Shown: piece after piece, positions 3,573-58,500 of the stretch | Layout: each line of letters opens with the position of its first letter | Numbering within the stretch: the first letter of the stretch is position 1 | Assembly (NCBI GenBank): GCA_024227475.1 | Contig: JAAEUI010000433.1 | Coordinates: forward strand, 1 to 59,743 | From: Paracoccaceae bacterium | GTDB taxonomy: Bacteria > Pseudomonadota > Alphaproteobacteria > Rhodobacterales > Rhodobacteraceae | Length of the DNA: 59,743 nt | Direction of reading: 5' to 3' | The notes under the pieces: generated by a model | What the model saw: the letters and a program-made list of their open reading frames with translations, nothing else | Database searches by the model: none | What the model was told of the DNA's origin: nothing | Made by a program: the position numbers and the translations under genes

Positions 3573-4350
3573 TGGCCTTGTCCCTTTCGATGATACCGAA
3601 CCGCGCCGTTCGCGGTGGTGTGCCGCCCGTCGAGCGTATTTGCATCCACTCCGCGATGATGCCCTCAAAATACTTCCAAGAGCGGATAGACTTCTCCGGC
3701 AGCGTTGGAGCCCGGGACTTGATTGCCGGGATGACATCAAGCGCCAGACTGGCACCGTTGGCAATCTGTCTCATGAGCGGACTTGCATCCTTCAAGCCCT
3801 CTGCCTCGGGATCGAGACAGGCTCCGGCCGCTGCTGTTGTCACCGACAAAACCATATTTACATTCACCCCCGCCAGGTGCGAGGTCGCCTCTACCTCGCT
3901 TTGCGAGGGATTCTTTTCTATTCTATTCTCTTCTACTCTATTCTTAGGGGGCACTTTTCCGGGGGCCGTATCCTTATTTTTCAAGGCCTTATCAGGGTGG
4001 TTTGGCTCGTGAACTGCCGGTGAATTGTCAGTCAATGCGCCGTCAACCGGCGCTTTACGCCGCGAAGACACCGTCTTCATGGCCCGTGCATTCTCAATTC
4101 TACCGCCTTTAATTGTGATCTTGCCGGCATCTATGAGCTGTTGACGGAGCCTTTTTGACTTCCGGGAGTTGCAGCGCCACAGCCCGTTGAGCACGAACAG
4201 GTTATCGCGCACGGCCATCTCAGTGAGGTTGATTGCGTTGCAGATACGGAGCAGCGCACCCTCCAGCTCCAGGTCGATGGCGTCCGTTCCCTCGTTCCAC
4301 TTGATCGGATATATCTTCCAGAACGGGCCTTCGTACTCTTTTCGCGGCAT
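3550..4350 (-). CDS. DUF1376-like, phage O-type replication protein candidate
   Basis: 266 codons. The ATG at 4350 has GAGG 5 nt upstream and is preferred over the ATG at 4386. The N-terminus reads FWKIYPIKWNEG, then an acidic strand and LEGALLRICNAI, the pattern of DUF1376 domains found in phage replication initiators. After about residue 100 there is a low-complexity linker whose DNA is a pyrimidine-rich near-repeat on the plus strand (3916-3950, encoding RVEENRIEKN), a feature common in such genes. The C-terminal part (EKSIRSWKYFEGIIAEWM) resembles the conserved C-terminal helix of replisome organisers. Likely role: replication initiation. This is inferred from the pattern and the neighbourhood. 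Confidence 0.7.
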   Translation of the reverse strand: MPRKEYEGPFWKIYPIKWNEGTDAIDLELEGALLRICNAINLTEMAVRDNLFVLNGLWRCNSRKSKRLRQQLIDAGKITIKGGRIENARAMKTVSSRRKAPVDGALTDNSPAVHEPNHPDKALKNKDTAPGKVPPKNRVEENRIEKNPSQSEVEATSHLAGVNVNMVLSVTTAAAGACLDPEAEGLKDASPLMRQIANGASLALDVIPAIKSRAPTLPEKSIRSWKYFEGIIAEWMQIRSTGGTPPRTARFGIIERDKANVIEDKV

Positions 4351-4416
4351 GTGAGCCTCGCTTTCACCGTGAAACAGAGACACCATTGGCGACTCTGTCC
4401 CGGATTATTGGCATGT

Positions 4417-4438
4417 TTGTATTAAGCGCGCAATACAA
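4417..4438. promoter_or_regulatory. Perfect 7-bp inverted repeat TTGTATT-N8-AATACAA
   Basis: The arms 4417-4423 and 4432-4438 are perfect. The element lies in the 103-bp gap between the MT-A70 methylase gene and the DUF1376-like gene, the largest gap inside the leftward operon. It contains the same CAATAC half-site as the operators at 7193, 15425 and 27291, but with the half-sites in the opposite order. An internal promoter or operator is plausible. Confidence 0.45.
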
Positions 4439-4453
4439 TGTAGGCCGATTTTG

Positions 4454-5080
4454 TCATTTGAACTTCCCAGCCTCATCGCCCCAAGTGTGCCAGAGAGTAT
4501 CGAAAGGCCGGTCGGTCCGGCTGAAAATCTCCGCGATATTCGCATCCGGTCCACAGTATTCTCTGATCCGGTCTGCAGCCTCATCGGGCTTGCGGGAGTG
4601 CTCACGCCGGGGCGCAAAGATAAGCTCGCGCACCTTCTTGCTGGCCCGCTTTGGGCTTCCAACCTTGTACAACAGGCACATTTCCGCGTTTTTGCGCGTG
4701 GTGTATCCCTGCCCCATCCAGAAATCGTTCTCCGAAAGGATTGCGGTTTGCGAGATCCCAGGGCGCCAGTAGGTTCTCTCCAGCCTTTGCTGCAGCTTGA
4801 TCCAGACGAATGCGGTGCTGCTGTATTTCAGGCCCCAGGAAGGGCCGACCAGCTGAAATGTCTTTTCGAGGAAAGGCGCCGTGGTCCACAGGAACACCCA
4901 GGCGTTCGGCTTCAAGAGCCGCTTGACGGGCAGATCGCAGATCTCCTGCATGGTCATGGTTTTGTAATGCTGGTCCGCGCTGCGGCCGGTGCCTTTGGGC
5001 GAATAGGTGGTGAACCGCCATGGATTGTCGATGCAGACAGCGTCAAATGCGCCGTCATCCAGCCCCTCAAACGTAACCAT
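4454..5080 (-). CDS. MT-A70 family adenine-N6 DNA methyltransferase
   Basis: 208 codons. MT-A70 enzymes transfer a methyl group from SAM to adenine N6. The catalytic DPPW motif is present as DNPW (residues 18-21, context VCIDNPWRF), then HYKTMTMQEI and a long aromatic-rich core (NAWVFLWTTAPFL). The C-terminal FDTLWHTWGDE is typical of phage MT-A70 proteins. The first 14 bp overlap the upstream gene. The Pro-to-Asn change in the motif is unusual but may be tolerated. Likely role: modification of phage DNA against restriction or regulation of methylation-sensitive promoters. Confidence 0.85.
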   Translation of the reverse strand: MVTFEGLDDGAFDAVCIDNPWRFTTYSPKGTGRSADQHYKTMTMQEICDLPVKRLLKPNAWVFLWTTAPFLEKTFQLVGPSWGLKYSSTAFVWIKLQQRLERTYWRPGISQTAILSENDFWMGQGYTTRKNAEMCLLYKVGSPKRASKKVRELIFAPRREHSRKPDEAADRIREYCGPDANIAEIFSRTDRPFDTLWHTWGDEAGKFK

Positions 5081-5291
5081 ATTTATTATCGCCTGTTCTG
5101 CAACTCCGCCGCCATCGCGTGCTGCTTCGCATTAAAACCATCCGCTCGCCGTCGGAAAAAGCCACACCAATATACATCTGGTTCACATTGGTTGTGGTTG
5201 CCGGCACCCATCTCAGGCGCCCTTGCCCAGTGTCTGAATCAAATATTAAATATTGGACCTCAACCGGATCGCCAATAGAGATATCAGTCAT
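5067..5291 (-). CDS. Small unknown protein, possibly SH3-like
   Basis: 74 codons from the ATG at 5291, which overlaps the stop of the zinc-ribbon-like gene and is preceded by AGGCAACGGGC. The sequence is beta-rich (IGDPVEVQYLIFD, then GQGRLRWVPA, then YIGVAFSDGERM), consistent with a small beta-barrel, and ends in a basic tail. The longer ORF reaching 5381 overlaps the upstream gene heavily and is not favoured. Function unknown. Confidence 0.6.
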   Translation of the reverse strand: MTDISIGDPVEVQYLIFDSDTGQGRLRWVPATTTNVNQMYIGVAFSDGERMVLMRSSTRWRRSCRTGDNKYGYV

Positions 5292-5604
5292 GCCCGTTGC
5301 CTGGCTCACAAATTTTGGTGCAATGAGGACAAAGCAAGTCTCCGTTCGGATAGGCATGAATGGCTGGATAATCGGACTCAAAAATCAAGAGATCACAACA
5401 ACTACACCAATTACCTTCCCACTTTTCACCAATTAGCAGATCTGGAATGATCGAGCGAAGTTTGTGGCGTAGTTCCGCTTTTTTCTCTTTGGAGCACCGT
5501 GTTTTGTTTTCAATTACGCTCTCAAACTCCAACAAATGATCTATGAGTTGCGTGTTGATTTCACGAATGTGTAATTTGTTTTCTTCGCTCAATGTGTCCG
5601 TCAT
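5284..5604 (-). CDS. Small zinc-ribbon-like protein
   Basis: 106 codons. The N-terminal 60 residues are a charged helix. The C-terminus carries WCSCCDLLIF and, 20 residues later, LLCPHCTKIC, two Cys-x2-Cys knuckles that could bind one zinc. It lies 3 bp after the RuvC-like gene and overlaps the next gene by 8 bp, so it is translated as part of the operon. Function unknown. Confidence 0.65.
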   Translation of the reverse strand: MTDTLSEENKLHIREINTQLIDHLLEFESVIENKTRCSKEKKAELRHKLRSIIPDLLIGEKWEGNWCSCCDLLIFESDYPAIHAYPNGDLLCPHCTKICEPGNGHD

Positions 5605-5607
5605 ATC

Positions 5608-6192
5608 TCACCCTCTCTTCCTGAAAATTGGCGCATCACCGCGCGCATAGTTTTTGTCGTGGATGCTCAAGGCGAGGTGCATCACCCCGCACGCATCCGC
5701 CTCATCATGACAAGTGACCGGCCAGCCCCGTTTCTTGCACTCAAGCTCGGCGCGGTCTTTCAGCCACTTCCTGGCCCGATCCGCGCCGAGGACGCGGACC
5801 TCTGGAGGTGAATAGGATCTGTTGATGAACCGTTTACGCCATTCTGCGATTGAGACGTAACTGGCGCCGATCTCAAAGTCGGCTGCGACCATCAAAACGA
5901 CCGCAACCGTGCCGACGATCGCCAGCTCGCGCGCGGGGTTTGTGTCTCTTGGATTGTGTATTGGTTCTTCGATGGCGATGTGAAGCACGCCATGGTTCCG
6001 CACCAGTCGCGTGAGCGTGTCACGGACCTTGGCGAAGTGCTGGCCCTCTTTGTGCGGGAGATCGGAGCCGCGGATTGTGCCGAACGCCGGCTTTTCCCAA
6101 TCACCACAACCAACGGCCCAGCCCAGCCCGTGATATGACGGATCTATGCCCATAATCACGGGCCGGGTGACTTGCTGGGGAACAAAACTCAC
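5608..6192 (-). CDS. RuvC-like Holliday junction resolvase
   Basis: 194 codons, starting at GTG 6192 in a GTGA overlap with the upstream stop. It has the RNase H-fold signature of RuvC-type nucleases: IMGIDPSYHGLGWAV with Asp17, LHIAIEEPI with Glu75/Glu76, and CHDEADACGV with Asp163 and Asp166 at the end of a helix. Length is close to that of cellular RuvC (about 170-190). Phage enzymes of this kind resolve branched replication and recombination intermediates before packaging. Identification rests on the four acidic residues and their spacing. Confidence 0.85.
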   Translation of the reverse strand: MSFVPQQVTRPVIMGIDPSYHGLGWAVGCGDWEKPAFGTIRGSDLPHKEGQHFAKVRDTLTRLVRNHGVLHIAIEEPIHNPRDTNPARELAIVGTVAVVLMVAADFEIGASYVSIAEWRKRFINRSYSPPEVRVLGADRARKWLKDRAELECKKRGWPVTCHDEADACGVMHLALSIHDKNYARGDAPIFRKRG

Positions 6193-6503
6193 AGCGGTAA
6201 AACCCCCTGCTCACTTTTGAGCCGCCAGATATGGATGTCCTTTCCGAACATCCCGCGCTTCTTTTCGCCGGTAGGTTCGAGTAGGCCGAGGCCGCGCAGC
6301 TCAGAAAGCCTGGGGCGAATAGACAGATCATGCTCCTGGAGCCGTTTGGAGACCTCTTCACTGGTGCCCTGCCAGCCGGTCTGGAACAACTCCAGACACT
6401 GTTCTCTCAGGTTGCGCCCGCGCCCGGAAGCCTCGATTGTCTTTGCAGCCGCCCGCGAGGTGTCGCCTTCCTTCCACCCCGCGGCGTTCGGGTAGTTCCC
6501 CAC
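6189..6503 (-). CDS. Small winged-helix DNA-binding protein
   Basis: 104 codons. Residues about 30-80 form a winged helix: REQCLELFQTGWQGTSEEV, then RPRLSELRGLGLLEPTG and the strand KDIHIWRL. The N-terminus GNYPNAAGWKEGDTSRAAA resembles a family of small phage proteins often encoded beside resolvases. It overlaps the RuvC-like gene by 4 bp. Probable role: transcriptional regulator or DNA-binding accessory protein; no target can be read from the sequence. Confidence 0.7.
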   Translation of the reverse strand: MGNYPNAAGWKEGDTSRAAAKTIEASGRGRNLREQCLELFQTGWQGTSEEVSKRLQEHDLSIRPRLSELRGLGLLEPTGEKKRGMFGKDIHIWRLKSEQGVLPL

Positions 6504-6506
6504 GGC

Positions 6507-7127
6507 TTAGTCCTCCTCCTCGCCGGCCGCCTCCTCTTCTTCGCGCTTCTTTTGCTGTTCCATCTCAGCTGCAATCGCCGCCTGGCCGTTCTCCCAGCCT
6601 TTCATCCAGGCCCCACCAGCCCCTGTTTCGAGCGCATGCGGACAGTGGTCCTTGGGAGTGAGCCCCTTCAAGCCAGCGCGATAGCCATCTGAGCGCGCCC
6701 TGTCGATCAGATCGTCGTCGGTTGCGTTGCGCATGGCCTCGTCAGGATCAAGGAGATCAAGCTGAGAGCCGATGGGCAGACCGAGGAGGAGAGCATAATG
6801 TTTGCGCAGAGCATAGCGACGGTAGGTTGTCGCATCGTCCTGCTCGATCTGTTTCAGCGTTTCGTCGAAAACCTCCAGGTTGATGCCCTGAACCTCCATC
6901 TTCGCGCGCACGCCTTTCAGTTCTTTTTTGGCAACGTCGACCTTCTTCTCGGCCCGCTCGAGCGCGTTCATGAAGAAGTGCATCGTTTCGGTGGTGATCT
7001 CGCCGGAATTGTGACCTGGCGCGTGGTCCCCGTTAGCCTCTTCAGCGGGAGGTGCGGCCTCTTTTGATTTTTTATTTCCTTTGTCCTTTTTGATGACATC
7101 GTCTTTAGCAGTCGTTTTTGCGACCAT
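6507..7127 (-). CDS. GapR-like coiled coil fused to a ribosome-modulation-factor-like domain
   Basis: 206 codons from the ATG at 7127, which has GGAG 8 nt upstream. The ORF track-style longer start at 7169 would sit inside the promoter. The Lys-rich N-terminus is followed by a helical region (about 45-105) resembling GapR/DUF2312 DNA-binding proteins of alphaproteobacteria (FFMNALERAEKKV, then a GIN turn). The C-terminal part matches the RMF pattern: GYRAGLKGL, CPH, WMKGWENGQ. The tail is a poly-Glu/Lys helix. It is the first gene of the leftward early operon, directly behind the operator-promoter at 7167-7206. Possible host-takeover or nucleoid-binding role; inference. Confidence 0.7.
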   Translation of the reverse strand: MVAKTTAKDDVIKKDKGNKKSKEAAPPAEEANGDHAPGHNSGEITTETMHFFMNALERAEKKVDVAKKELKGVRAKMEVQGINLEVFDETLKQIEQDDATTYRRYALRKHYALLLGLPIGSQLDLLDPDEAMRNATDDDLIDRARSDGYRAGLKGLTPKDHCPHALETGAGGAWMKGWENGQAAIAAEMEQQKKREEEEAAGEEED

Positions 7128-15587: not shown

Positions 15588-16256
15588 TTGTCCAAGAAGA
15601 GACAGCGCAGTATCCGCACTCCTCCAAGGCGCGACCACATAACCCCGTCAAAACGAGAGACAACGGTTGAGAGCGGCCCGACGCGCGAGGCCATCATCCA
15701 GCGATGCAAGCAGATCGGCGTTGCGTTCGAGACCATGGCCAATGGCCGCGTGGTGCCCGAGGCAAACATTCAGAGATCAACGGATGCCTTGAGCTTATTG
15801 GCCGGCAGGGATGAGATAACCGGCGTGCAGTTGCAATCAGGCTTCGTCTACGGGTATCTGCACATGATGCTTTTCGGGCAGTCATGGCCCAGCGCGGCCG
15901 ATTATTCAGGAATTGTGCATGAGGTGCTGGATGTGGACAGTCACGTTGTCCGGGACGCGGGGCGGCTGACAGAAGAAGACCGGGAGGCATACCGGCGCGG
16001 CGCTCACTATAGGTTCGGTAAAGCCGATCAAGCCCTGCAGCGGCGGGTGATCAGCAACCGGGTGCGGCCAATAACGCGGATTGTCTGCCTGCAGGGCTTG
16101 ATGCCGAGGACGGCGAACGAGATGACGTTCCTGCACTCAGGGCTCAATGCGATAGCGTTCGAGTTTGGCTTTGGGGGGATGGTGAGGACCGGGAAGCGGC
16201 GAAAACTGGCGGGAAAGCAGTTTTATTCGCCCAATCCCAACATGATTTCCAATTGA
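15588..16256 (+). CDS. Unknown basic protein
   Basis: 222 codons, apparently starting with TTG behind AGAGGGGGA (spacing is long, so the start is uncertain). The N-terminal 30 residues are basic and disordered. The remainder is helical (GVQLQSGFVYGYLHMMLFG, VISNRVRPITRIVCLQGLM). Isolated between two leftward groups and the only rightward gene in 14.1-18.2 kb. Function unknown. Confidence 0.6.
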   Translation: MSKKRQRSIRTPPRRDHITPSKRETTVESGPTREAIIQRCKQIGVAFETMANGRVVPEANIQRSTDALSLLAGRDEITGVQLQSGFVYGYLHMMLFGQSWPSAADYSGIVHEVLDVDSHVVRDAGRLTEEDREAYRRGAHYRFGKADQALQRRVISNRVRPITRIVCLQGLMPRTANEMTFLHSGLNAIAFEFGFGGMVRTGKRRKLAGKQFYSPNPNMISN

Positions 16257-16465
16257 GCAACCCTCTTTTCAAGGGCGGCCAGACGGGCACCAGCATACGC
16301 CCAGCTGTTCGGGGGGATTGCTTTGGGCAGGTCCAGGCCCCGGCGCTGTGCGGTTGCCCTGACGTAGCTTGAAGTGCAGCCCAGTTTCTCCGCGATCTGC
16401 GGCGCCGTCCACTCGGGGTGGTCTTTGTGACAGTCTAGCACCATCATCCAGTTTACAGATGCCAT
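16223..16465 (-). CDS. Small helix-turn-helix protein
   Basis: 80 codons from the ATG at 16465. WTAPQIAEKLGCTSSYVRAT (about residues 19-38) is a canonical helix-turn-helix, followed by a linker and a C-terminal helix (ARLAALEKRVAQLEIML) that could dimerise as a coiled coil. Overlaps the end of the convergent gene by 34 bp. Likely a small transcription regulator. Confidence 0.65.
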   Translation of the reverse strand: MASVNWMMVLDCHKDHPEWTAPQIAEKLGCTSSYVRATAQRRGLDLPKAIPPNSWAYAGARLAALEKRVAQLEIMLGLGE

Positions 16466-16498
16466 TTTAAAAAGCCTCTTTTTCAACTATTCAATGAC

Positions 16499-16738
16499 TT
16501 ACGGATTAGGTTTTGCCGTTGAATTGGTGTTCTTTTCCACTTCTTCGAGCAAATCGGCCAGTTCCAGCCTGTTCATATTTAGGATTTCCTGCGTCGTTTC
16601 GATCCAAACGATATGATAGTCCAGCAGGCCGTCATTGCTGTGGCACCGCAAGGCCGCCTTCAATTTGGTGAGGCGATCACGTTGTCCTTGATCCATTTGC
16701 TCCTGTCCGTCGCAGTAGAACGCCCTTTCGCCCGTCAT
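16499..16738 (-). CDS. Small unknown protein, probably coupled to a 27-codon leader ORF
   Basis: 79 codons from the ATG at 16738, 4 nt after the stop of the ORF at 16743-16826. Alternative upstream starts (ATG 16777, TTG 16786) would lie inside that ORF and have poor ribosome sites. Helical, with a C-terminal acidic Leu-rich helix (RLELADLLEEVEKN). Function unknown. Confidence 0.5.
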   Translation of the reverse strand: MTGERAFYCDGQEQMDQGQRDRLTKLKAALRCHSNDGLLDYHIVWIETTQEILNMNRLELADLLEEVEKNTNSTAKPNP

Positions 16739-16742
16739 GTTT

Positions 16743-16826
16743 TTAAATATAGCTCTTATTGTTTGTGATTGGCCCATAAGGCGCAAACTTCCTAAATCGA
16801 CTGATCATGTCTTTCTGTTCAGACAT
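16743..16826 (-). CDS. 27-codon leader peptide candidate
   Basis: ATG behind an excellent TAGGAG site, 27 codons (starts MSEQKDMISRFRKF, ends NNKSYI). It begins 35 nt after the 3' CCA of the tRNA-like RNA and stops 4 nt before the ATG of the next gene. The DNA at its start has a 7-bp inverted repeat (CATGTCT/AGACATG). Its size, ribosome site and spacing suggest translational coupling rather than an independent product. Confidence 0.4.
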   Translation of the reverse strand: MSEQKDMISRFRKFAPYGPITNNKSYI

Positions 16827-16860
16827 GTCTTCGCTCCTATGAGGCCTTTACTGTAAGGGG

Positions 16861-17065
16861 TGGAGCGGGCGGCGGGAATCGAACCCGCCAGGGCGGCTAT
16901 GCCTTTTCGTGCTGCGGCTGTTTGCAACCAAACCGCAACTCTCCAAAGCACTATCCCCAGCTTTTGACGCGTCCTCCATGGGGGCCAGGCCTACCCAGAT
17001 TGCAGCCGACGCAACCCTTCCGGTTTCCTGTGTTCCGTGGCGCTCTACCTCTGAGCTACGCCCGC
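16861..17065 (-). tRNA. tRNA-Gly-like RNA with a ~130-nt insertion replacing the anticodon arm
   Basis: Read on the minus strand: a perfect 7-bp acceptor stem (GCGGGCG at 17065-17059 with CGCCCGC at 16871-16865), the UA at positions 8-9, a D arm GCTC-AGAGGTA-GAGC, a T arm GCGGG-TTCGATT-CCCGC, discriminator U, and an encoded CCA (16863-16861). U73 and the D arm resemble bacterial tRNA-Gly. Total length is 205 nt rather than about 75. The anticodon stem has no partner: CCACG follows the D arm, but no CGTGG occurs. The insert folds into other stems (GGTTGC/GCAATC with a 7-nt loop at 17016-16998; TGCGG/CCGCA with nested TTTG/CAAA at 16937-16913). No group I intron cores or tmRNA tag frame found. 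An ORF (16848-17075) overlaps it. Confidence 0.6.
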
Positions 17066-17085
17066 ATAAATTCATTTGATGGGCC

Positions 17086-17328
17086 TTATGAGTCAGTGGT
17101 TGGCGGGTGTGTTATGGCGTCTTGAGGTGCCCAATAGTTTGGGTGCCAGACATCCCAGGAATCGTGCACGCGAACAAAACAATCGCGGTAATCTTCAACT
17201 CGCCCCCCTTCCTCTTCCGCAGCCTCTTCTTTTGAGCACCAGCGTACTAGCTGAATACCTTCGTCACGGAAGTAAGCCCAAAAGGGTTCATGCCTCGGCG
17301 GTTCCTGTTCTTTTGCTGCGATCCACAT
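17086..17328 (-). CDS. DUF551-like small phage protein
   Basis: 80 codons. WIAAKEQEPPRHEPFWAYF near the start and HDSWDVWHPNYWAPQDAI near the end give the Trp/Pro pattern of small DUF551-type proteins common in phages. The ribosome site is ATAGGCCC, like its operon neighbours. Function unknown. Confidence 0.55.
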   Translation of the reverse strand: MWIAAKEQEPPRHEPFWAYFRDEGIQLVRWCSKEEAAEEEGGRVEDYRDCFVRVHDSWDVWHPNYWAPQDAITHPPTTDS

Positions 17329-17349
17329 TGTTTGGGCCTATGCGTTTGT

Positions 17350-17610
17350 TTATGGGTGTCGCTCGCCGCACGGTTCAGCCTCTTCGCCACATGAGAGGAT
17401 TTCCGCCCCGCAGGTGAACCGCAAAAAACCCCACCCCGTATTGAACCCAGGGGCATTACAATCGGGGCACAGTTCTTCTCGAAGATCGACCACGTTCTTA
17501 AAGCCTGCGCGTTGCTGGTTGATAATGCAGGTGGCAAGGAGGGCCAATTTCGGATCTTCACTCAGATCGCCGCCTCCCGCCATAAATTTAATTACTTCAG
17601 TCTCTGCCAT
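17350..17610 (-). CDS. Small cysteine-rich protein
   Basis: 86 codons behind AGAAAGGCCC. The N-terminal half is helical. LCPDCNAPGF, then FTCGAEILSCGEEAEPCG, contains five cysteines that could form a zinc knuckle. Function unknown. Confidence 0.55.
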   Translation of the reverse strand: MAETEVIKFMAGGGDLSEDPKLALLATCIINQQRAGFKNVVDLREELCPDCNAPGFNTGWGFLRFTCGAEILSCGEEAEPCGERHP

Positions 17611-17675
17611 CGTTCGGGCCTTTCTGTTAAGTTATGCCGCCTGCTCGGGCAGCGTGAATTTCCCCGTTCGGGGGC

Positions 17676-17864
17676 TCACTTGGTTGTCTGCCGGTCTTCC
17701 GGCCATTGCTTCTCAAGACGGACAAACTCACTGAACGTGAAGATGGTCCCAGCCGGGATTACCACCTTGTCCGTGTGCTCCGTGTAAACGGTCAAATCTT
17801 CCGCCAATTTCATTTCACGGATGCGATACGTCGCAACGGTCTGGACATCAAGTTCTTCGCTCAT
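17676..17864 (-). CDS. Small beta-rich protein
   Basis: 62 codons from the ATG at 17864 (AAAAGGCC upstream). Strand-rich (VATYRIREMKLAEDLTVY, KVVIPAGTIFTF). No family recognised. Second gene of the leftward operon from the promoter at 18157-18185. Confidence 0.5.
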   Translation of the reverse strand: MSEELDVQTVATYRIREMKLAEDLTVYTEHTDKVVIPAGTIFTFSEFVRLEKQWPEDRQTTK

Positions 17865-17875
17865 GTGCGGCCTTT

Positions 17876-18121
17876 TCAGTAATTGCCAACGAAGCACACG
17901 CTGGTGACCTCGTAAGATTTTTTGATTTCGTCAATCGCATCCTTGATCGCGCCAAGTGTGGTATCTTGAATTGGATCAAAAGCACCTTCGTTGCCGTCCA
18001 TGTAAGCTACAAACGCCCCGTGCTCTTTGAGCACCCCTATGCCCGACAATTCCCCCACTTCCGCACATATCGCGTCATAGCTTCCGTAATGAATGGAGAC
18101 TTTTTGTGGTGTGGTTGGCAT
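17876..18121 (-). CDS. Small unknown protein, first gene of a leftward operon
   Basis: 81 codons with AGAGAGCCCC upstream. Mixed alpha/beta (VSIHYGSYDAICAEVGEL, GVLKEHGAFVAYMDG). Directly downstream of a strong leftward promoter and its palindrome. Function unknown. Confidence 0.55.
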   Translation of the reverse strand: MPTTPQKVSIHYGSYDAICAEVGELSGIGVLKEHGAFVAYMDGNEGAFDPIQDTTLGAIKDAIDEIKKSYEVTSVCFVGNY

Positions 18122-46551: not shown

Positions 46552-49500
46552 ATGGCGAACGATCTCGAAAAGTATGCCTCCCCCCTGATTCCGAGCCAGG
46601 ACGACACCCAGCTTCCTGATTTCTCAGAGTATGGTCAGCCGCTCGATATTGAGCAGCCGGATCCCCCTACGAGCGCCGCGCCAATGGCGGCGGAAGCCCC
46701 GGACTTCTCTGAGTTCGGCCAGCCGCTCGACCCGCCCCCCGCACCATCTCCCCAACCTACAACTCCAGCGCAAGCAACGCAGGCGACCGACTACGGTGAT
46801 TTCCTCGGTGGACTCTACCGATCCGCCACGTCAACAAACGTGAAGCTTGCCGGCCACACGTTCGGTGCCATCTCCGATTTGAACGAAGGGTCTGAGTACG
46901 ACAAGAACATCGACGAGATCATTGGCTGGGGCGATGCCCTGGGCGAAGGCATAGCGCCTGCCAAATTCGACAAAATACAAGATGCCTGGGAAGGAGGCCT
47001 TGGAGATCTTACAGATTGGGCTCAGAACGCCGCGGGCGAGGCTATCGGCTCATCCTTCACAAGTATTGTCGGTGGCATTGCCGGCGGCGCGGCCGGGGGC
47101 AAACTGTTTAAGGGTGCTGGTGCCAAGAAGGCTGGGCGAACCCTCGGCGCTGCAGGTGGCGCATTCATGGGCTCTGCGCTCCTGAACGTGGGGTCCATGC
47201 GCCAAACGCTGATCGAAGAGGGCGTAACGGACCGCAAGCAGCGCGGACGTTGGGCCATGGCTGGCGGCGCGGCAATGGCCGGTCTGGATTCCATCCTCCC
47301 TGCCCGCGTCACATCGAAATTGACCGGCCCCCTGCGCGACCAGTTGGAAAAGACCATCGCGCGCCGGTTGATGAAAGAGGTCGTCAAGTCAGCCGGGCAG
47401 GAAGGCTTGACCGAAGCCGCGCAGGAAACGCTGGAATACAGCCTTGGCAAGTATGTGTCCGGCAACAAGGTCGATCTGAATGAGGTAGTGGATTTGGCGC
47501 TCAACTCATTTGCCGCTGGCTTTGTGGGTGGTGCTGCCATTGGTGGCGGCGGCGAAATCGCCAAATCGGGCGCCGAAACGGTAAATCGGGCGCTAAAAGG
47601 CGATTTGCGGACGAAAGAGACGCGCTCCACGCGCGTTGAGCCCACAATCAAGGTTCCCGGTCAGCAGGACGCTCTTGCCGCTCCTGAGACGATCTATCAG
47701 CCCGGGCCCGAAACAGATCTGGCCACATACATGCCATCCGGCCAGCCCCCGGCGACTGTCACCCCGGCAGGCCGCCCAACCTCCCCCGTTGAAGTCAATG
47801 ACGCTGCACAGCAGCCGCCCTTGCGGATCCCGCCCCCGGCGTCTCGACAAATCCCTCCCCCTGCAGCTCCCACCGATGATTTTGCAGATTCCGGTATAGA
47901 CCTCGAGGTCTTCGAGACCCTGGAGGAACAAGGGTACTCGCACGAGCAGATTGCTGGCATGAACGAGCTCGAGCGCCAGGGCGCGATCGAGGAGGCCGTC
48001 GAGGCTGGTGCTGCCCCTCCATCTGGCGATGGTGAGAAGCGTTCTTCACACGAATGGATGCAAGACCCAGACTTTGATTGGCAAATTCTTGATCCTGACG
48101 GATGGGATCGGCGCGACCTCGATGCTTCGATGAGTGAGCCAATCACCAAGGCTGAGTTCAACCGTCGCGTAACAATGTCTACGATCAGGCCGAAGCCAGC
48201 ACCGCAGCCGGAAGGAACACGCGCAAAGCCGGTCCCGGCCCAGACTTCCGAGGACATCGAGCCTGCCCGCGAGCAGGTGGAGCCCGAGCCCACAGAGGCC
48301 CAGAAGGAAGCTGGCAACTACAAGAAGGGCCACATCAAGTGGAACGGTCTGGATATCACGATTGAGAATCCGGTTGGTTCTGAGCGGAGCGGTACGGATT
48401 CGAGCGGCAAGCCATGGTCCGTGCAAATGCCAGCAGATTACGGTTACGTGAAGCGGACCGAGGGAGCCGACGGCGACCAGGTCGACATCTACATGGGCCC
48501 GAGCCCTGATAGTGACGCCGTTTTTGTGGTCGACCAGAACGACCCGGCTACCAACAAGTTTGACGAGCACAAGGCAATCCTTGGCGTCAACAGCGCTGAA
48601 GAGGCCCAACAGCTGTACAATGCTGGCTTCTCTGACAATTCTGGCCCGAGCCGGTTCGGCGGCATGAGGCAGATGACAGCGGGCGAGTTCAAGGACTGGC
48701 TGCGCAATGGAGACACGACCAAACCAACGGAGGCTACGAATGAAGAGGCTCAAACAGACGTTCCGGCTGGCACTGAATTGGCTGATCGGCCTGGTGCGCA
48801 AACCGGAGCGCAAGGCACTGCACAACGCCCGGCTACTGGCCCCGAAGCCGCAGCAGATCCAGGAGTTCCGGGAGATATCGAACCAGGAGATGCACGCACA
48901 CCGGAAAGCGGGAGTGCAACACCTCAAGGCCCTGCGGCAACCAATACCGATTCACTTGGCGATGGGCGAAGCCGGCCAGGAGATGGTCCTTCTGCAGGAG
49001 GAGATCAGGCAGGTGCGTCTGACTCTGACTCTCGCGGAGTTGGCGGAGAAGCACTTGCCGGCGAAAGCGCAGATAGACCTCGGAGAGGTGTACACGAAGG
49101 TGGAAAAGGCGATCTGGACGGAGAACCCAGAGAACCAGGCACCGGACGAACTTCTGGAGGCCGCCTGGACGGAGGACCCGGAGGACCAGGCACCGGAGGA
49201 ACTTCTGGAGGCCGCCCTGGAGACCGTGTCCAAATTGCTGATGGAGATCAGAAGAGTCCAGAAGATACCGGAGCTAAGGCAGAAACTTCAGACGTTGGTT
49301 CAAGACGAGGAGGAACTGAAGCTGGCGGAAGAAAACCTGCTTCGGCCGCAATCCCCGACGATACACGCAAACGGTTCGCTCGATACCTGAGAGGCAAGCG
49401 CCGGCTGGACCCGGCCCTCATCGCGGCCAACCTGGACACAACGTCCCGTGTTGGCCGCCAGCTCATTGACGAGGCGGTCGAGGCGGGAACGGCGCACCAG

Positions 49501-52500
49501 GCGCGAGATGGTTCGTGGCAGCGCGGCCCGGGTCCGGCTGAACTGGTTGACGAAAAACCGTCAACGGCTGAATTGGTTGCGGCACAGGAGACGGCTGAAC
49601 CGGCTGCGGAAAAACCAAAGGATGAATATGTCCCGACCGCCGTCGACCTTCTGCGCGACAAGCTGAAAAAAGCAGACGGCATTTCGGTTGATCCATCTTA
49701 CCCCACACTGCAAAACTCAGATGAGCAATCAAGCTCCAGAGCTTTGAGCTTCCCAATGTCGCTCGACGGACCTTCAGGGCGGATGGTCATGGGCAGGAAG
49801 AAGGAGGGCGGTCCAGAGTTGACTGTGTTCGACCCGCAGTTGCTGGACATGCCGTTCGTGAAGAAGGTGGAGAAGATCACAGGACTCAAGGCGACTGTGA
49901 CGCAGAGAGCTCAGAAGCGCGAGCAGAGTCAGTTTTATCATGGCATCGATCTTGCGACCGACAGTGGTTTCCAGGAACTGTTGGATTCCATGGAACTGAC
50001 AACACCTGAAAAGGTTGCTCGTGGCGTGGCAGTTAATCTCCACCGCAAGGGTCGATTGTCCACATCCAACGCTCGCAAGCTTCTGGCCGGCGCCGGCCTG
50101 CCCGAGCTGTCAAAGGCTGAAATTGATGCATATCTGCACAAAACCAGCATCATAGATGGTAAGGACGAGAAGGGAAAACCAAGGCAATTCCTGAATTTTC
50201 ACAGTGAAAGAGATGGTCGAAATGACCTGGCCGCATACGGGATGATTGAGGCTATTGACCGCGGGTGGGTGAAGTATGATCGTGGCGGGCATCTACATGC
50301 CCAAAAACCATTTATCGATTTTGTGGCAGGCGCCGCCCCGAAGGAGCAAATCGCTGCGGCACAGGAGGGAGCTAGAAACAAGGGGTCTTTTCTAACTTTC
50401 TCAGATGAGGAGACATCTTCTGCCCCCACAAGTGAGGCGGCAAAAAGTGTCGAGCGCCAGGCCGAAGACAGCGACGAGGTTGTCACGCAATCCCTGACGA
50501 AGACCGGCCCTTGGGATTTCAACGACACCTATCCGGCATCCCTGCCGGGCAAGGCGCAATACAGCTATCAGGACGGCAGAGAGGTTGTTGAATCCACCAT
50601 CGAGGCGTTGGAAAGTTCGATATCGGACCTCACGGGATTGAACCGTGACCTCTATGAACAGCGCCAAGCAGCCGACAAGGACGCGGTCAAAGCCACACTG
50701 CGGGATATCAAGGGCATCCGCGACGACTGGCGCACGACACACAGCGCAGAAGCCGTTGCCGCCATCATCAACCAGGGGCGCAAGCGCGCACAGATGGAAA
50801 GGGCTACCGCGCCAGGGCCCCGCGTTCCACCAAAAGACCCGAAGACCGATGCAGAAAAGAAAGTTCAAAAACAGGGGGTAAATCGAACTTCCGGCCCGAA
50901 GACGCTCACGGCCTTCCTGAAAAGCCTTGGAGGAATCAAGGAGGAGGGTGGCGAGCTGGCATCCAGGGACATCAGGCGGCAGCGCCCGGGCCTGTTGAAC
51001 AACGCCAGCGGCATGACCTTGGAAGAAGCAACACAGCAGGCTGTTGACGCGGGATATCTGATCGACCAGGGCAACATCACAGGTGGAGCGTCAGAGGTCA
51101 CATACGATGATTTGCTGCAATTGCTGGACGAGGAACTGGGCGGCAACCCGGTCTATCCTGTCGGGCTGAAACCTGTTGCGGCGGCCGGGCCATCGCGCTC
51201 CCCGCGCGAAGAAGACATGGCTGCAGACTACGGAGATAAATTCGCAGCCGCGGCGATGGAGCTGGAAGCAGAAACCGGCATCAGTGTTGATGATTATTCG
51301 CACAACCAGCTGCTGCGCGCCGCCGAGCTTGTCAACGAGGGCGAATTGATCGATAATGCGATCGAACGCGCGCTCTATGAAGATGTGACAGAGGCCACTT
51401 CCGATCAGGATGACTTCAATGCGGATGACATCGAAGCAGCATTTGGGCACCCTCCAACAGCTGAGGACACTCGCCAAGGCGGAGAAAAACCCAGCCAAGC
51501 AGAGATCGTTGAGGCAGGTAGCCAACCAGACACAGACGCTGGCCAGGATGGCCCGCAGGCTGGAAGCGAAGAAGTAGGCGCTGACGGTCGCCCACAGACG
51601 GTCCTGCCCGGCGCCGAACGTATCCCAGACAAAGAGCATGCAGAGAGGCTTGGAGACAAGCCAATGCGCGGCACTGCCCAGCAGCAGGAGCCCGGTGGCC
51701 TGTTCGGTCCCGAGCGCGACCAGCTTGACCTGGTTGATATGGCGAAAACCCCTAAAGCCCGTGCCCCCATTGCCCCACAGTCCAAGCAGAAAGGGCAGGC
51801 TGCATCGAAGGTCGCAAAACTGCTTCACGAGTTGGGTTTGGCCGAGGCAATTATGGAAGGCTCAGACTTCCACGCGCGCATCGAAAACCCGCCCTACATG
51901 GACCTGGTGATAGAGCGCTTGCCGCATGATGACGGCAAGGGCGGCCAGATGCTGTCTCTTGCCCACTATGTCGAGCAGAACGGCGATTTGATCAACGATG
52001 GCGAGATGACGTGGACCATCACCGTTGACGGCAAGCTCGAACTGTACGACGTTATTCCTGCCGGCATGGTCCGTGGCCAGCGCCCGGCACAGGCTGATCA
52101 GGCGTTCGCGCGCATGTTCGCTGGCAATTTGATCAATCAGGGGTTCCACAAAGTTGTATTAGGAGAAGTTGATGGAAGAGCAGAAGATGAGGTGGGTCGG
52201 GCCGACGTTCATCGAGCCCCACGTGACCGGGAACAGGAAGCAACGCAGGAAGCAGTTAGCGATGATCAGGCGGAAAAAAAGGATTCCGGCGCGGAAAATG
52301 CAAAATCGGACGAGATTATGCAAGATCCGCCAAAGATCACCGGCCAGCACCTAGACCGTCTGGTAAAGGCGTTCGCCCCGCCCAATGTTTCCAGCGCAAT
52401 AGACCGCGCATACAGGCCTCGCAAGAAGGTAGTAAAGAGCGCTGCGCGCAATGTCGCAAAGGGCATTGCCGAGGCTGCCGAGGGTCTGTCTGCCCTGTTC

Positions 52501-55500
52501 ATCGATCCAAACAAGGTCGGCACCGGCCCGTCATTCGATGAGGAAACCTATCAGCGCGCCCTGCCACACTTCCGCAAGGCTGCAGCTCATTTCAAGGACG
52601 CTGCGCACGATATAGGTGAATTACTCAATCGCATGATACAGTCCTTTGCCGATGCCGGCATGGCTCGCGAAGCTGTTGAAACGATGAGCCCGTACCTCGA
52701 ACGCTACATCGTTGATGTTGCCAACGGCAAGGAGAACCCCAATGCACCAGGTCAACAGCCAAGTGTGGAATCAGATCTCGGAACAGGAACAGCTGCAGAC
52801 GGATTGGGCGAAACAGGTGTTTCCACTGTCGGAGACGGATCTGGACGAGGCTCTGCAGAAGGAGGAAGCGCGCCTGACCAAGGAGCTGAACGACCCGTTA
52901 CTATCCGCGGCGTATCTCCTGGTGATGCCGCTTCTTTGGGAGAGCCGGGCTATCTCGAACTTCACCGCGAAGAACCCGAGCCAGAAACCGGGCCTGCCGA
53001 ACGTGGAGACGATCGAGGAGGCGATAGCGCTGGCGTCGAAGGATTACCCGATAGCCGCGTTTCAGCAAAGGAAACTGCGAAATCTTCTACAAGCACCGCC
53101 GACGTAAAAGAACGCCAAGCCGCGCAAGCTGCCGCTGAGGTCATAGGTGTTGTTGACGGCGATCTCGACAATATCCGCCAGACGCTTCCCATGCTGTTTC
53201 CCAAGCAGCAGGAGGACGTGCACAAGATTGAGAAGCGTTTCCAGGAGCCCAATGCTCACGGCATGCTGATCACGAACGGCACCGGCACCGGCAAGACCTT
53301 CTCCGGCCTTGGCGTGGTCAAGCGCATGGCAAAGCAGGGTAAGACCAACCAGTTGATGGTCGCGCCGTCTCAAGGGATTCTGCAGAATTGGCTGACTTCG
53401 GGCAAAATGATGGGCCTGGACATCTCCGTCCTTGGATCGACCCAGGACGCCGGCACCGGCCTTGTTGCCACCACATACGCCAATCTGGGCGAGAACAGGC
53501 ACCTTGCAGACCGGGACTTCGATTTTGTGTTGGCAGACGAGGCACACAAGCTTTCATCCAATGCGCAAGGCGAAAACACGTCCGCGCTCGAAACCTTCCG
53601 CGCTATCACAAATCACCCGCGCGGGCTGCATACCCGGGCCTATCACCAGCTCCGCGACCAGGTCGACAAGCACCGGGCCCTGGTGGACCGCGCAACGGCT
53701 GCTGTTGCGGGCAAGCATGCCAATGCGGTCGATCTCAGCGAGAAGGCGCAACAGAGCGCCGAGGCCCTGAACGAAGCCGTCAAGGCGAAGGTTACTAAAT
53801 TCAAACAGCAGGAGCGGCCAAAGGCATTATTCATGTCGGCCACGCCGTTCGCCTACCACTTCTCGCTCGATTACGCTGAAGGCTACCTGTTCGATTATCC
53901 CAGCGCATCGGGAGACCGCTACAACAGCGGCGACGGTCGCGACCAGTTCTTTATGGAGAACTTTGGCTACAGGATGCGCTACAACAAGCTCACCAAGCCG
54001 GAAGCCGACGTGAACAGCGAGATCATGGAGCGTCAGTTCCATGAAAAGCTGAAAAAGGCAGGCGCCCTCGCGGGCCGGGCCCTGGATGTTGAGAAGGACT
54101 ACGACCGCAAATTTGTCCTGATCGAAAGCAAGATCGGCGCACAGATCGATAAGGCGCTGGATTTTCTCATGCAGGCCGAAAAGGGGCGCTACAGGCCACT
54201 CCACGACGCAATCATGAAGAAGTTCGACTATCTGTCGAGGCAGCGGCTCCTGGAGGCCATCAAGGCCCGTGAGGCCATCCCATACCTCAAGAAGAGCTTT
54301 GAGCTGGGCCGGAAGGCCGTTGTGTTCCACGATTACAACGAAGGTGGCGGCTTCAATCCGTTCGAATTGGTCATCGATCCGAGTGAAGAAATTACCAAAA
54401 TTATCGACGGCAAGCCGAAAACCGAGAACGTGGCGCAGTTGTACGCTGATTTCGTAAGGCAAAACCCGGAGGTCATGGAGCTCCAGTTTTCCGACTACCT
54501 CGCGCCAATCGATGAGCTGTCACAAGCGTTCGGCAGTCAGGCCGGGATCTACAACGGCACCGTCAGCAACAATGAGCGCAAGAAGTCGCTCGATGCTTTC
54601 AACACTGACGGCAGCGGCGTCGATCTTCTGATTGTCCAGTCAGCGGCAGGCGAGTTCGGCCTGTCGATGCACGACATCTCAAACGTGCACCAGCGCGTCA
54701 TGCTCAATCTTGGCATGCCGACCCGGCCAACGTCTGCCCTGCAGCAGGAAGGCCGGATCTACCGTGAAGGCCAGATGTCAGACGCGCTGTTCCGGTACAT
54801 GAGCACGGGGACGGCGTGGGAGCGCTCGACGTTCGCTTCCAAGATTGCAGAGCGCGCCGGCACGGCCGAGAACCTGGCGTTGGGCAATCTTGCCAGAACG
54901 ATCCGCCAAGCGTTCGTGGAAGCCTACCAGGACGCCGACACATACGCACCAGAGCCGGGCGAAGGCACAGGCGGCAAGGCAGCCGACCGAGCCTTGAACG
55001 AAGCCTTGAGCGATTGGGACGTGGCAAAGACGTACTATTTCGCGCAAGCCAAGAAGAAAGGCCGCCGCGATCAGCGCGAAGGCGCCGACTATTTCGCCAC
55101 TCCGGAGCCTGTCGGTTTGAAAATGGTAGAGCTTGCCGACCCGCGCCCAGCAGAGAAGATGTTGGAGCCGAGCGCCGGGCATGGCGCAATCTCGCGGTTC
55201 TTCCCCGAAACCTCAGACCGGACAATCGTTGAGCCGTCTTTTGACCTGTCAACCAAGGCACAGCTGAACACACCCGGCACCCGGGCGATTGTCGAGAGGT
55301 TCGAAGATCTGAACATCGTCAACAAGTATGACGGCATCGTCATGAACCCGCCTTTTGGGAGCGGTGGACGCACGGCGATCGACCATTTGGAGAAAGCCAC
55401 GCGCCACCTGCGGAACGGCGGCCGCATCGTTGCCCTGATCCCTACCGGCCCAGCTGCAGACAAGAAGTTCGATGCCTTCTACGAGGAGGTTGAAAACGTC

Positions 55501-58500
55501 TACAAAGTCGCAGACATCAAGATGCCTGCCGTCACGTTCGAGCGCGCCGGGACGAAGGTGGCCGCCCGCATTGTGGTCCTTGAGCGCCAGAATGACGTTG
55601 CCAGTCAGCAGGCGATGCCACCCCAGCAGGTTACGCGCGATTACACCAACGTCGAGAAGATCAACGAGCTTTTCGACCGCATCGAGCACCTGGAGATCCC
55701 GCCACGCACGGAACCCCAGACCAAAGACCTCGACATTGGCGACGAAAGCACCGTCACGATTGATGGCGTCAAATGGGATATTCAGGATGACCCGAGCGGC
55801 CAGATCCGCGTCAAGCCGCTGCAATTCCTTGATAGAGGGGCATTCAGGGCCTCAGCCCGCCTGGCAGAGCGGAACGGCGGCGCTTACGACAAAACCTCAA
55901 GGGCTTTCAAGTTTGACACAGCAGAGCAGCGCATGGCCTTCCTTGCGGACCTGCGGTCACCGCCCGCCGAGCCGGCAGCCCCATCCACGGCGGAATCTGC
56001 CGAACACGCCTTCGACCTGGCCGAGACCGTCCATGCGAAGACCGGCAAGAATCTGTTTGTCGCCACGATCCGCGACCGCGTGGAGCGAGACGAGTACAAT
56101 CGCATCCTGGAGGTCGCCAAGAAGAACGGCGGATATTATTCGTCCTTCCGTCGCAACAATGCGATTCCCGGCTTCCAGTTCCCGAGCGAAGCCACCCGGC
56201 AGGCGTTCGTTGACGAAATCACCGGCAAGCCGACAGAGGCCCCGCTGGCCCAGCTGAGCGAGACACCGGCAACGCCTCCTGTCCCAGGCTTCTTCAGTCC
56301 GCTTCTGGTGGCCGCTGAGAACCTGAAGCAGGAGAAGGGCCGTGCGGACCAGTTCCTCGCCGTCCTAAAGAAAACACCGGGCGTCAAACCGGACGAGCTC
56401 CTATGGACAGGGACCGAGGATTGGCTGCAGGAAAAAGGGTCCGAGTCAATCACCCGGCAGGAGGTCGAAAGCTTCATCAGGGCCAACCAGGTCCGCATCG
56501 AGGAAGTGGAGCTTGGCGCTCCGAGCGAGACAAAGGTCAACCTTAGTTCGTATCAGGACGACATACCGGATGATGGCTTTTTTAAAGAACAAGCCGAGGA
56601 TATGTATCTTGAAGCGGCCCGCGAGCAGATCGCGCACCGCGAAGGGATTGAACCGTCCGAGGTTGATGAGGGCTGGGCGCTGGAATATGCGACAAACAAG
56701 GCGCGAGAAGAGTATGAACCCACCAGCTCATACATGAACGGAACCGTCACGATAGGCGAAAACTCCTTCGACTTCACAGTCAATTACGATTCCCTTGATG
56801 AGTATATGGAAATCTGGTCAGCAGACTGGCCGGGCCAGAGTGATCAAATCTACAGCGGAGATAAGCTCGACAATCCGCAGATCGAGCGTTTGGTGGCTCA
56901 GGAATATGCCGACGCGCTGGACATTGATCTGGATGAGGATGGGGCCAGATTTGAAGGTTGGACCCTTCACGGTGGGTCAAATTACCGGGAAGTTCTGTTG
57001 ACGCTGCCAGCTGAACAGTTTGAACGCTCCAGGACAGATGATCCTTACGAACAAATCCCGTTTTCAGATCGATTCCACTCTGCGCACTACGACCAAGAGA
57101 ACATTGTCGCGCATGCACGCCTCAAGGACCGGGAAGCCCGTGACGGCAAGCGCATTCTGTTCGTCGAGGAGATCCAGTCAGATTGGCACCAGACCGGCAG
57201 GGATGAGCGCTATAAATCGGATTTGCGTGCCGAAATGGCCCCGCACTTACAAACCATTGCCGAGGCAAAGCGTGAGCTGGAGGCTTTGGGCGTATCCGCT
57301 CTTGGGAATGAATATGTTGATGCACGTTCCGGCGCTCCCCTAAATCCAGAAGCGTATTGGTCTGCAAAGGATGCGATGCTCAAACACAGTTTGGCCAGAT
57401 CAGAAATTGCGCTACTGCAGGGTGTTCGATCAGTCCCCGACGCCCCCTGGAAGCAGACCGATGCATGGGCCGGCCTCACCTTCCGGAACATTCTGCGCGA
57501 GGCCGTCGAAAAGGGTTACGACAAGATAGGCTGGACAACCGGCGAGCAGCAGGCCGAGCGGTACAATTTAAGCCGGTCTATTCATTCGGCGCAGGCATGG
57601 ATCGAGCAAGATCGTGAATTTATAAAACTGCGTAGCAGAAGTGTAGATTTGCACATCGTCAATGGTGGTCATGTTCGTCTCGGCTTCAATGATGAGGGTA
57701 TTGTGACAACATCTCCTTCTGGCTTCGAAGAAATGCAAGGCAAGCCGCTTAGTGAGGTCATAGGCAGGGAGTTGGCGACACAAGTAATGGCCGCTCCTGA
57801 TGGGACGACGTTCGACGCTATGAACATAGAAATAGGCGGCGAGGGTATGCGCCATTTCTACGACAAGATGCTGCCCCGCATGGTCAACAAGCTGGTCAAG
57901 AAGTGGGGCGGCAAGGTGTCGACCGAGCCAATCAAGCTGACTGACATGCCCTGGACGGAGTATGAAGGACAGAACAGGAGCACAGCCTACGTCGCTGCCA
58001 ACCGGCCGACCGTCTGGTCCCTCGACATCACCCCGGCTATGCGCGAGTCCGTGGCGGCAACCGGCGTACCGTTGTTCGAGCGCCGGCAGGGCACTGTTTC
58101 ACGTGAAACCCAGATCACCGACTTCGCCAAGCGCCAGAAGGTTCAAAACGATCTGTTGTCGATGAGCAACAAGATCCTCGGGCACGGCCTTTTTGTCCAG
58201 TTTACGGACAACATGGAGCCCGGGCACGAGGGGTCGTATTATCCGACCGCCAAGCTGATCAAGGTCGCCCTCGATGCTGCTGATCCAAAACGGACCTTCA
58301 ACCATGAGGCCATCCACGCACTGCGCGACATTGGCGTCATCACCAAGCGCGAATGGAATACCCTCGCAACGTCGGCACAAGCACACTGGATGGAGCACTA
58401 CCAGACGCTGGAGCGCTACGAGAGGGACTACGCCCAGGTGTTCGACCTCTCGCCCGGGCAGCTGCATGATCTGTTCGTCGAGGAAGCCATCGCGGATGCC

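What the first reader, a model, noticed from the sequence alone, without database searches (positions are those of the whole stretch)
16861..17065. Interrupted tRNA-Gly-like RNA, 205 nt, with intact acceptor, D and T arms but no anticodon arm
A perfect 7-bp acceptor stem, encoded CCA, and canonical D and T arms flank about 130 nt that replace the anticodon arm. The insert has its own stems (17016-16998 and 16937-16913) and shows neither group I intron core elements nor a tmRNA tag frame. It may be a tRNA-like regulatory RNA, a decoy substrate for tRNA enzymes, a pseudo-tRNA that absorbed DNA, or a precursor with an unrecognised intron. The 6-bp stem with a 7-nt loop having U33 (17010-17004) is a possible relocated anticodon-like arm.
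Basis: partly seen in the sequence, partly recalled or inferred. Interest (0 to 1): 0.82.

Follow-up and report, generated by a model that had tools for sequence, protein, structure and literature searches.

The report
Phage tRNA-like RNA lacking anticodon arm
A bacterial virus carries a stretch that reads as the top half of a glycine tRNA with an unrelated piece where the code-reading part should be; whether it is a working RNA or a broken tRNA gene is not settled.

Summary
On the minus strand, 17065-16861, a perfect 7-bp acceptor stem, D stem, T stem, TTCGATT loop, U73 and encoded CCA flank 153 nt without an anticodon arm. No such frame arose in 100 shuffles of the window, and both halves match real tRNA-Gly genes. 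It is not an ordinary intron-bearing tRNA: no single excision gives an anticodon loop with U33, while 13 of 16 other interrupted phage tRNAs regained a clean arm. It reaches no Rfam threshold. The insert is non-coding by codon score, no more structured than shuffles, and had no relative in the searches made. The 'relocated anticodon arm' is chance-level. None of 84 related phage records showed this RNA, so covariation cannot be tested; two related contigs do carry lone tRNA 3' halves, one beside an integrase. The nearest known thing is T4 RNA C, of unknown function, whose acceptor-like and T stems each show one compensated pair in 7 sequences. A tRNA-framed phage RNA and a recently broken tRNA gene are about equally likely.

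The parts
17059..17065 (-). acceptor stem, 5' strand GCGGGCG (G1, C2)
   Evidence: 7 of 7 Watson-Crick pairs with 16871-16865
17042..17056 (-). D arm: stem GCTC/GAGC, loop AGAGGTA
   Evidence: sequence; 5' 24 nt match the assembly's tRNA-Gly(GCC) 23 of 24
16889..17041 (-). 153-nt stretch in place of anticodon arm and variable loop
   Evidence: no anticodon arm with U33 by any single excision, 3 pairs at best without U33; codon score like shuffles; fold z +0.9
16998..17016 (-). stem-loop with 7-nt loop GTCGGCT and U33; not better than chance
   Evidence: 13% of shuffled inserts hold such an arm
   Evidence: fold; not above shuffles
16872..16888 (-). T arm: stem GCGGG/CCCGC, loop TTCGATT (C50-G64)
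   Evidence: sequence; the Rfam tmRNA model matches exactly these 17 nt
16861..16871 (-). acceptor stem 3' strand CGCCCGC, then T73 and encoded CCA
   Evidence: sequence; 16888-16861 is 28 of 28 with tRNA-Gly(TCC) of kin genomes
16848..17075 (-). frame open through the whole RNA (75 codons from ATG); probably accidental
   Evidence: codon score of the insert in its best frame -2.5, inside the shuffled range
17086..17328 (-). upstream small ORF (80 aa), stop codon 20 nt before the RNA; no family
16499..16777 (-). downstream small gene (92 aa), no family

Best explanation
It is the upper half of a tRNA-Gly (acceptor, D and T arms, U73, CCA) with the anticodon domain replaced by a 153-nt stretch, among small genes of what is probably a complete phage genome. 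My working mechanism is a tRNA-framed small RNA: transcribed with its neighbours, cut at its 5' end by host RNase P, which binds the acceptor-T stack, and protected by the closed acceptor stem and CCA, so that the tRNA frame is the chassis for the internal stretch. It cannot decode. Shown: the frame, its tRNA-Gly ancestry, and that one excision does not restore an anticodon arm. Inferred: transcription, processing, stability, any function.
For: All three retained arms are fully paired and CCA is encoded. Acceptor-side glycine identity elements named in PMC9976931 (passages) are present: G1-C72, C2-G71, U73, and of the extra T. thermophilus set G10 and C50-G64 (U16 is not: the base is A). The replacement spares both neighbouring stems, and a plain insertion into an intact tRNA would leave an arm that one excision restores. 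RNase P binds the acceptor-T stack of all pre-tRNAs (PMC4919913, passages). An engineered 'tRNA scaffold' of acceptor, T and D arms with the anticodon stem-loop turned into an insertion site serves to express RNAs in E. coli (PMC3753655, passages). A natural parallel is T4 RNA C, which keeps an acceptor-like stem and a T arm in the 7 sequences compared and is transcribed late (PMC9697503, passages).
Against: No homologue, hence no covariation: none among 84 related phage records scanned with the tRNA model (41, 43) nor with the detector on fetched loci. The insert is not more structured than shuffles. No promoter-like site near it; the two terminator-like sites lie on the other strand and are at chance level. 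The usual R15-Y48 contact (recalled) is not kept: G15 and G48. The six neighbouring genes from 16223 to 18121 have no relatives in the fetched loci, so the locus may be young. The finding was noticed because its arms are intact, which favours fresh relics too.
Confidence: 0.4

Rival explanations
1. A recently broken tRNA-Gly gene (pseudo-tRNA): the phage picked up a tRNA-Gly, and a deletion with insertion, or recombination between two tRNA-Gly genes, replaced the middle. The intact arms are simply young.
For: The 5' half is nearest tRNA-Gly(GCC) and the 3' half nearest tRNA-Gly(TCC); no relatives and no excess structure; predicted tRNA pseudogenes occur in T4-like phages (PMC1524935, passages); closely spaced tRNA pairs with tRNA-Gly ends are found in bacterial genomes, mostly alphaproteobacteria by their titles (46 of 47 matches hold a further T arm inside).
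Against: No remnant of the missing tRNA parts was seen by eye in the insert; no pair of the frame is broken; the RNA sits in a 308-nt gap in a genome whose same-strand gaps have a median of 21 nt, though three gaps are longer.
Confidence: 0.36
2. A former phage attachment site: the 3' half is an att core taken from a tRNA-Gly gene, and the 5' half came along in a faulty excision or a second recombination.
For: Two contigs of related phages carry a lone tRNA 3' half with CCA: L353 (a capsid relative), 106 nt after a Phage_integrase gene, and L175 (a terminase relative), without a 5' partner in the 236 nt before it. Mycobacteriophage D29's attP matches the window's T-arm half (hit H9).
Against: No Phage_integrase or Resolvase match in the window's contig at E up to 0.1. 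An att site needs only the 3' part; here a D arm and a fully complementary 5' acceptor strand are present too.
Confidence: 0.09
3. A decoy or substrate mimic for tRNA enzymes: it presents the tRNA-Gly acceptor end to RNase P, CCA enzyme, GlyRS, EF-Tu or a toxin that reads the acceptor end, without an anticodon that an anticodon nuclease could cut.
For: Acceptor-side identity elements intact; U73 with G71 is described as the tRNA-Gly combination read by a glycyl-tRNA acetylating toxin (PMC9976931, passages).
Against: C35 and C36, also named as glycine identity elements, are absent; I looked for no such toxin or nuclease in the host; no expression data.
Confidence: 0.08
4. A tRNA precursor with an unknown intron, or two introns around the 17016-16998 stem-loop.
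For: Other phage tRNAs carry inserts of 40-76 nt that Rfam does not name at gathering; 'enigmatic' tRNA introns are reported in Lak phages (PMC6784885, passages).
Against: No single excision yields U33 in a 7-nt loop; without that demand the best arm has 3 pairs, reached by 300 of 300 shuffles. The stem-loop has C37 and anticodon CGG, foreign to a glycine acceptor, and is at chance level.
Confidence: 0.04
5. Assembly chimera at a tRNA repeat.
For: Single contig of an unnamed assembly; conserved tRNA ends are natural joining points.
Against: Same-direction ORFs flank it on both sides, and the contig ends share 10 bp in the frame of one giant ORF, as expected of a closed circle (read by eye).
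Confidence: 0.03

Closest known systems
T4 RNA C (species 1 RNA) of T-even phages
   Same: Phage RNA with an acceptor-like stem and a T arm (TTCGAAT), no anticodon arm that I could see, similar length (139 nt); function unknown (PMC3014915, PMC9697503, PMC12685909: passages)
   Different: RNA C has two T-T mismatches in the acceptor, I saw no D arm, no CCA follows the stem, and it sits in a tRNA cluster; sequence kinship was not tested
Intron-bearing phage tRNAs (Lak phages in print; L044, L053, L059, L102, L109, L131, L153 here)
   Same: Acceptor, D and T arms split by an insert
   Different: 13 of 16 such tRNAs regain an anticodon arm by one excision, and 15 of 101-177 nt pass the tRNA model cut-off, though the L044 one and the 374-nt one in L109 do not; this RNA does neither
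tmRNA
   Same: tRNA upper half with the anticodon domain replaced
   Different: Canonical D stem, no tmRNA call by ARAGORN; the Rfam model matches only the T arm
Engineered tRNA scaffold (PMC3753655)
   Same: Acceptor, D and T arms kept, anticodon stem-loop replaced by a payload
   Different: Artificial, with a designed hairpin as insertion region
tRNA 3' halves at phage attachment sites (L353, L175)
   Same: T arm, acceptor 3' strand and CCA in a related phage
   Different: No 5' half there; the window contig has no integrase match
YrlA Y RNAs (recalled)
   Same: tRNA mimicry in bacteria (recalled)
   Different: Not among the Rfam matches up to E 10 (that Rfam holds the family is recalled); no TROVE gene found in the window's 79%-complete assembly

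Membership tests
tRNA (functional) | acceptor, D and T arms | tested here: met
tRNA (functional) | anticodon arm of 5 bp with 7-nt loop and U33, after one excision | tested here: not met
tRNA (functional) | score over the Rfam tRNA cut-off | tested here: not met
   18.1 of 29 bits
tRNA-Gly identity | G1-C72, C2-G71, U73 | tested here: met
   sequence against PMC9976931 passages
tRNA-Gly identity | C35 and C36 | tested here: not met
   no anticodon arm
tmRNA | score over the Rfam cut-off | tested here: not met
   17 nt of T arm only, 14.3-17.0 of 47 bits; ARAGORN none
group I intron in tRNA | Rfam match, and exons that form an anticodon arm | tested here: not met
phage anticodon-less tRNA-like RNA (T4 RNA C type) | acceptor and T stems conserved with compensatory changes | tested here: inconclusive
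   RNA C: one compensated pair in each stem in 7 sequences; the window RNA has no homologues to test
phage anticodon-less tRNA-like RNA (T4 RNA C type) | stable transcript | not testable with these tools
   no RNA data
phage attachment site in a tRNA gene | integrase or recombinase in the phage | tested here: not met
   no PF00589 or PF00239 match in contig C433 at E up to 0.1

The most novel reading that the evidence does not exclude
Some phages use a gutted host tRNA as a natural scaffold: the tRNA frame gives processing by RNase P and end protection, and the anticodon domain is exchanged for a small-RNA payload. T4 RNA C, this RNA and possibly the L066/L074 RNA would be independent cases.
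Probability: 0.28. Interest if true: 0.75.

Novelty: new variant of a known kind. Interest (0 to 1): 0.45.

Why it matters
If it works as an RNA, it is a natural counterpart of the laboratory tRNA scaffold and gives a concrete reason why phages might keep tRNA-like genes that cannot decode. It would also make the old question of T4 RNA C testable, since both would share the acceptor-T frame. If it is a relic, it is a clean example of how phage tRNA genes break, and a warning that intact acceptor and T arms alone do not make a tRNA.

Tried and rejected
Rejected: group I intron, tmRNA, permuted tmRNA; Ro60 partner; coding fragment (best codon score -2.5; shuffles median -9.0, 95th percentile 0.6; seven real genes nearby 2.2 to 24.7; the 52-aa translation without match among phages up to E 1), although one frame is open through the whole RNA; duplicated phage DNA (best repeat 13 bp); plasmid match of the insert (none up to E 1). 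Similarity to the L066/L074 insert is at chance level (282 of 500 shuffles).

Led nowhere: DHH neighbour in viral contigs; exact and near-exact scans of viral contigs (both tied to this acceptor or D-arm sequence); capsid protein in 394 genomes of the assembly's family (own only); the one genome-collection scan, where 46 of 47 matches hold a further T arm inside and one spans a run of N; a neighbour protein in phages.

Limits of the excision test: its score is my own, its shuffles keep base composition only, and the 16 comparison tRNAs are not all independent (those of L102 and L109 are near-copies). 19 candidates were scored: the window copy, the L066-type RNA and 17 others, of which L426 (a pair across a run of N) was dropped. 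Three of the 16 (L060, L062, one in L131) did not give an arm better than shuffles.

They brought the lone tRNA 3' halves in relatives, so I added the attachment-site rival and lowered my first choice from 0.42 to 0.40, the relic from 0.40 to 0.36, and the novel case from 0.30 to 0.28.

Full report
What is there. On the minus strand between 17065 and 16861 the sequence reads as the outer part of a tRNA-Gly: 7-bp acceptor stem, T8 A9, 4-bp D stem with AGAGGTA loop, 5-bp T stem with TTCGATT loop, T73 and CCA. Between D and T stems lie 153 nt. A strict detector finds this frame once in the window and never in 100 triplet-block shuffles. The last 28 nt equal tRNA-Gly(TCC) genes of genomes akin to the window's assembly, and the first 24 nt differ at one place from that assembly's tRNA-Gly(GCC). 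Among 1145 distinct tRNAs that ARAGORN finds in the loci held, the best sum over both halves is 47 of 52. So the tRNA ancestry is real.

Setting. The window is contig 433 of an assembly of 657 contigs, 79% complete. It carries a terminase, a major head protein and a giant ORF that runs off the right end and re-enters at the left in the same frame across a 10-bp overlap (by eye), so I take it to be a closed phage genome. No Phage_integrase or Resolvase domain is found in this contig. The RNA begins 20 nt after the stop of a small ORF and lies, in the same direction, in a 308-nt gap between called genes; same-strand gaps have a median of 21 nt, and three gaps are longer. Among 101 genomes searched, only the window itself gave a full-length match.

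It is not a split tRNA in the usual sense. I tested every single excision from the insert for an anticodon arm. The window RNA gives none with U33, also when long variable arms are allowed; without the U33 demand its best arm has three pairs, which every one of 300 shuffles reaches. Having no U33 solution is itself uncommon (3 of 300 shuffles), so it partly reflects where the T bases happen to lie. The same test on 16 other interrupted phage tRNAs gave, in 13, an arm that at most 2 of 200 shuffles match; three did not. A second check is the Rfam tRNA model: 15 interrupted phage tRNAs of 101 to 177 nt pass its cut-off, while the window RNA scores 18.1 of 29. One other RNA behaves like the window's: a 202-nt one in the tRNA cluster of L066 and L074, with a 147-nt insert, identical in two metagenomes; it may be a decayed tRNA.

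The insert. It has no Rfam match at threshold. It folds no better than its shuffles, scores like shuffled sequence for codon usage, although one frame is open through the whole RNA, and has no match among plasmids. Among phages, the 20 rows listed of 336 records match only the tRNA-like ends or their immediate surroundings. A stem-loop like the proposed relocated anticodon arm is seen in 13% of shuffles.

Comparative evidence. Terminase and capsid relatives in viral contigs reach 54% and 72% identity. I scanned 41 of the terminase records and 43 of the capsid records with the tRNA model: 6 of these 84 had a match up to E 10 and 4 had one over the cut-off; I saw this RNA in none. Many of these records are fragments. 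The detector on 160 loci found two ordinary tRNAs, and ARAGORN 11; on 40 pieces of longer records the detector found nothing. Of 37 left-arm genes, the six from 16223 to 18121 have no tblastn match in the fetched loci. A scan of one genome per species for tRNA-Gly ends 142 to 172 nt apart gave 47 matches: 46 with a further T arm inside and one run of N. So the RNA stands alone, and structure conservation cannot be tested.

Lone tRNA halves in relatives. One weak hit (L353, a capsid relative) is a tRNA 3' half with ACCA, about 100 nt after a Phage_integrase gene and without a fully paired 5' partner that has a D arm. L175, a terminase relative, has another lone 3' half. These look like attachment sites, so phages of this broad group do carry tRNA pieces for that reason. 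The window differs by its D arm, its perfectly complementary 5' acceptor strand and the lack of an integrase.

A known parallel. T4 carries RNA C, annotated as a small stable RNA, with matches in 710 phage records. I aligned seven sequences: T4, T2L and five from the low end of the 40 rows listed. I counted ten pairs, five of the acceptor-like stem (its two T-T mismatches left out) and five of the T stem. They are kept in 98.6% of cells, with one compensated pair in each stem, and sliding the partners destroys this. Of the shuffle controls, the covariation score (1 of 500) and cells changed on both sides (3 of 500) stand out, but the number of compensated pairs does not (322 of 500), and there may be only two events. 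RNA C is transcribed late and its function is called unknown (PMC9697503, PMC3014915, PMC12685909; passages only). Whether its tRNA-like frame has been described before I could not establish from the listings and passages seen.

Mechanism. RNase P binds the acceptor-T stack (PMC4919913, passages), and an engineered tRNA scaffold with exactly these three arms and a replaced anticodon stem-loop is used for RNA expression in E. coli (PMC3753655, passages). From this I infer that the transcript would be trimmed and its ends protected, and that the internal stretch is the payload. Glycine identity elements of the acceptor side are present, those of the anticodon are not (PMC9976931, passages), so charging would be weak at best. 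None of this has been shown for the window RNA. The equally plausible alternative is a tRNA-Gly gene broken not long ago; the intact arms are what drew attention, so they weigh less than they seem.

Verdict. Only RNA data or relatives can settle it.

Noticed in passing
L102 385-503, L109 5244-5366 and 6064-6183, L131 4814-4926, L059 2154-2280, L044 3375-3495; perhaps L122 1494-1618: Phage tRNAs with inserts of 40-54 nt just after the D stem; removing them gives a clean anticodon arm (L122 not tested). L102 and L109 share an ACGTAAAT, hairpin, ACAGCAAyGTT pattern. No group I call in Rfam. Possibly an undescribed small intron class.
   Followed up: partly
L053 155-289 and 1926-2059, L153 1482-1630: A second layout: insert in or after the anticodon loop, with GCTCCG..ACC and TACAAGCT motifs, only partly kept in the second L053 tRNA.
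   Followed up: partly
L066 4906-5107 (identical in L074; also L254): A 202-nt tRNA-like RNA with intact acceptor, D and T arms and no restorable anticodon arm, next to an intron-bearing tRNA at 4786-4900.
   Followed up: partly
L271 909-1047 (T4 rnaC): T4 RNA C has an acceptor-like stem and a T arm with one compensated pair in each among 7 sequences.
   Followed up: yes
L353 1517-1544 and L175 (reverse strand, near its end): Lone tRNA 3' halves with CCA in relatives of this phage, the first just after a Phage_integrase gene: probable attachment sites.
   Followed up: partly
window 6507-7127, minus strand: Phage protein with a ribosome modulation factor (RMF) domain, Pfam E 8e-8.
   Followed up: no
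window 46552-59743 and 1-1740: One giant ORF of about 4,970 codons across the contig ends (10-bp overlap), a polyvalent phage protein with stretches like DarB-type antirestriction, endolysin, methyltransferase and helicase families (right part only scanned).
   Followed up: partly
L050 (two tRNAs, about 3931-4496 and 6164-6721), L118 (one, reverse strand): tRNAs of viral contigs interrupted by about 500 nt that seem to hold an ORF (read by eye).
   Followed up: no
window 5081-5607: The largest gap between called genes (527 nt), unexplained.
   Followed up: no
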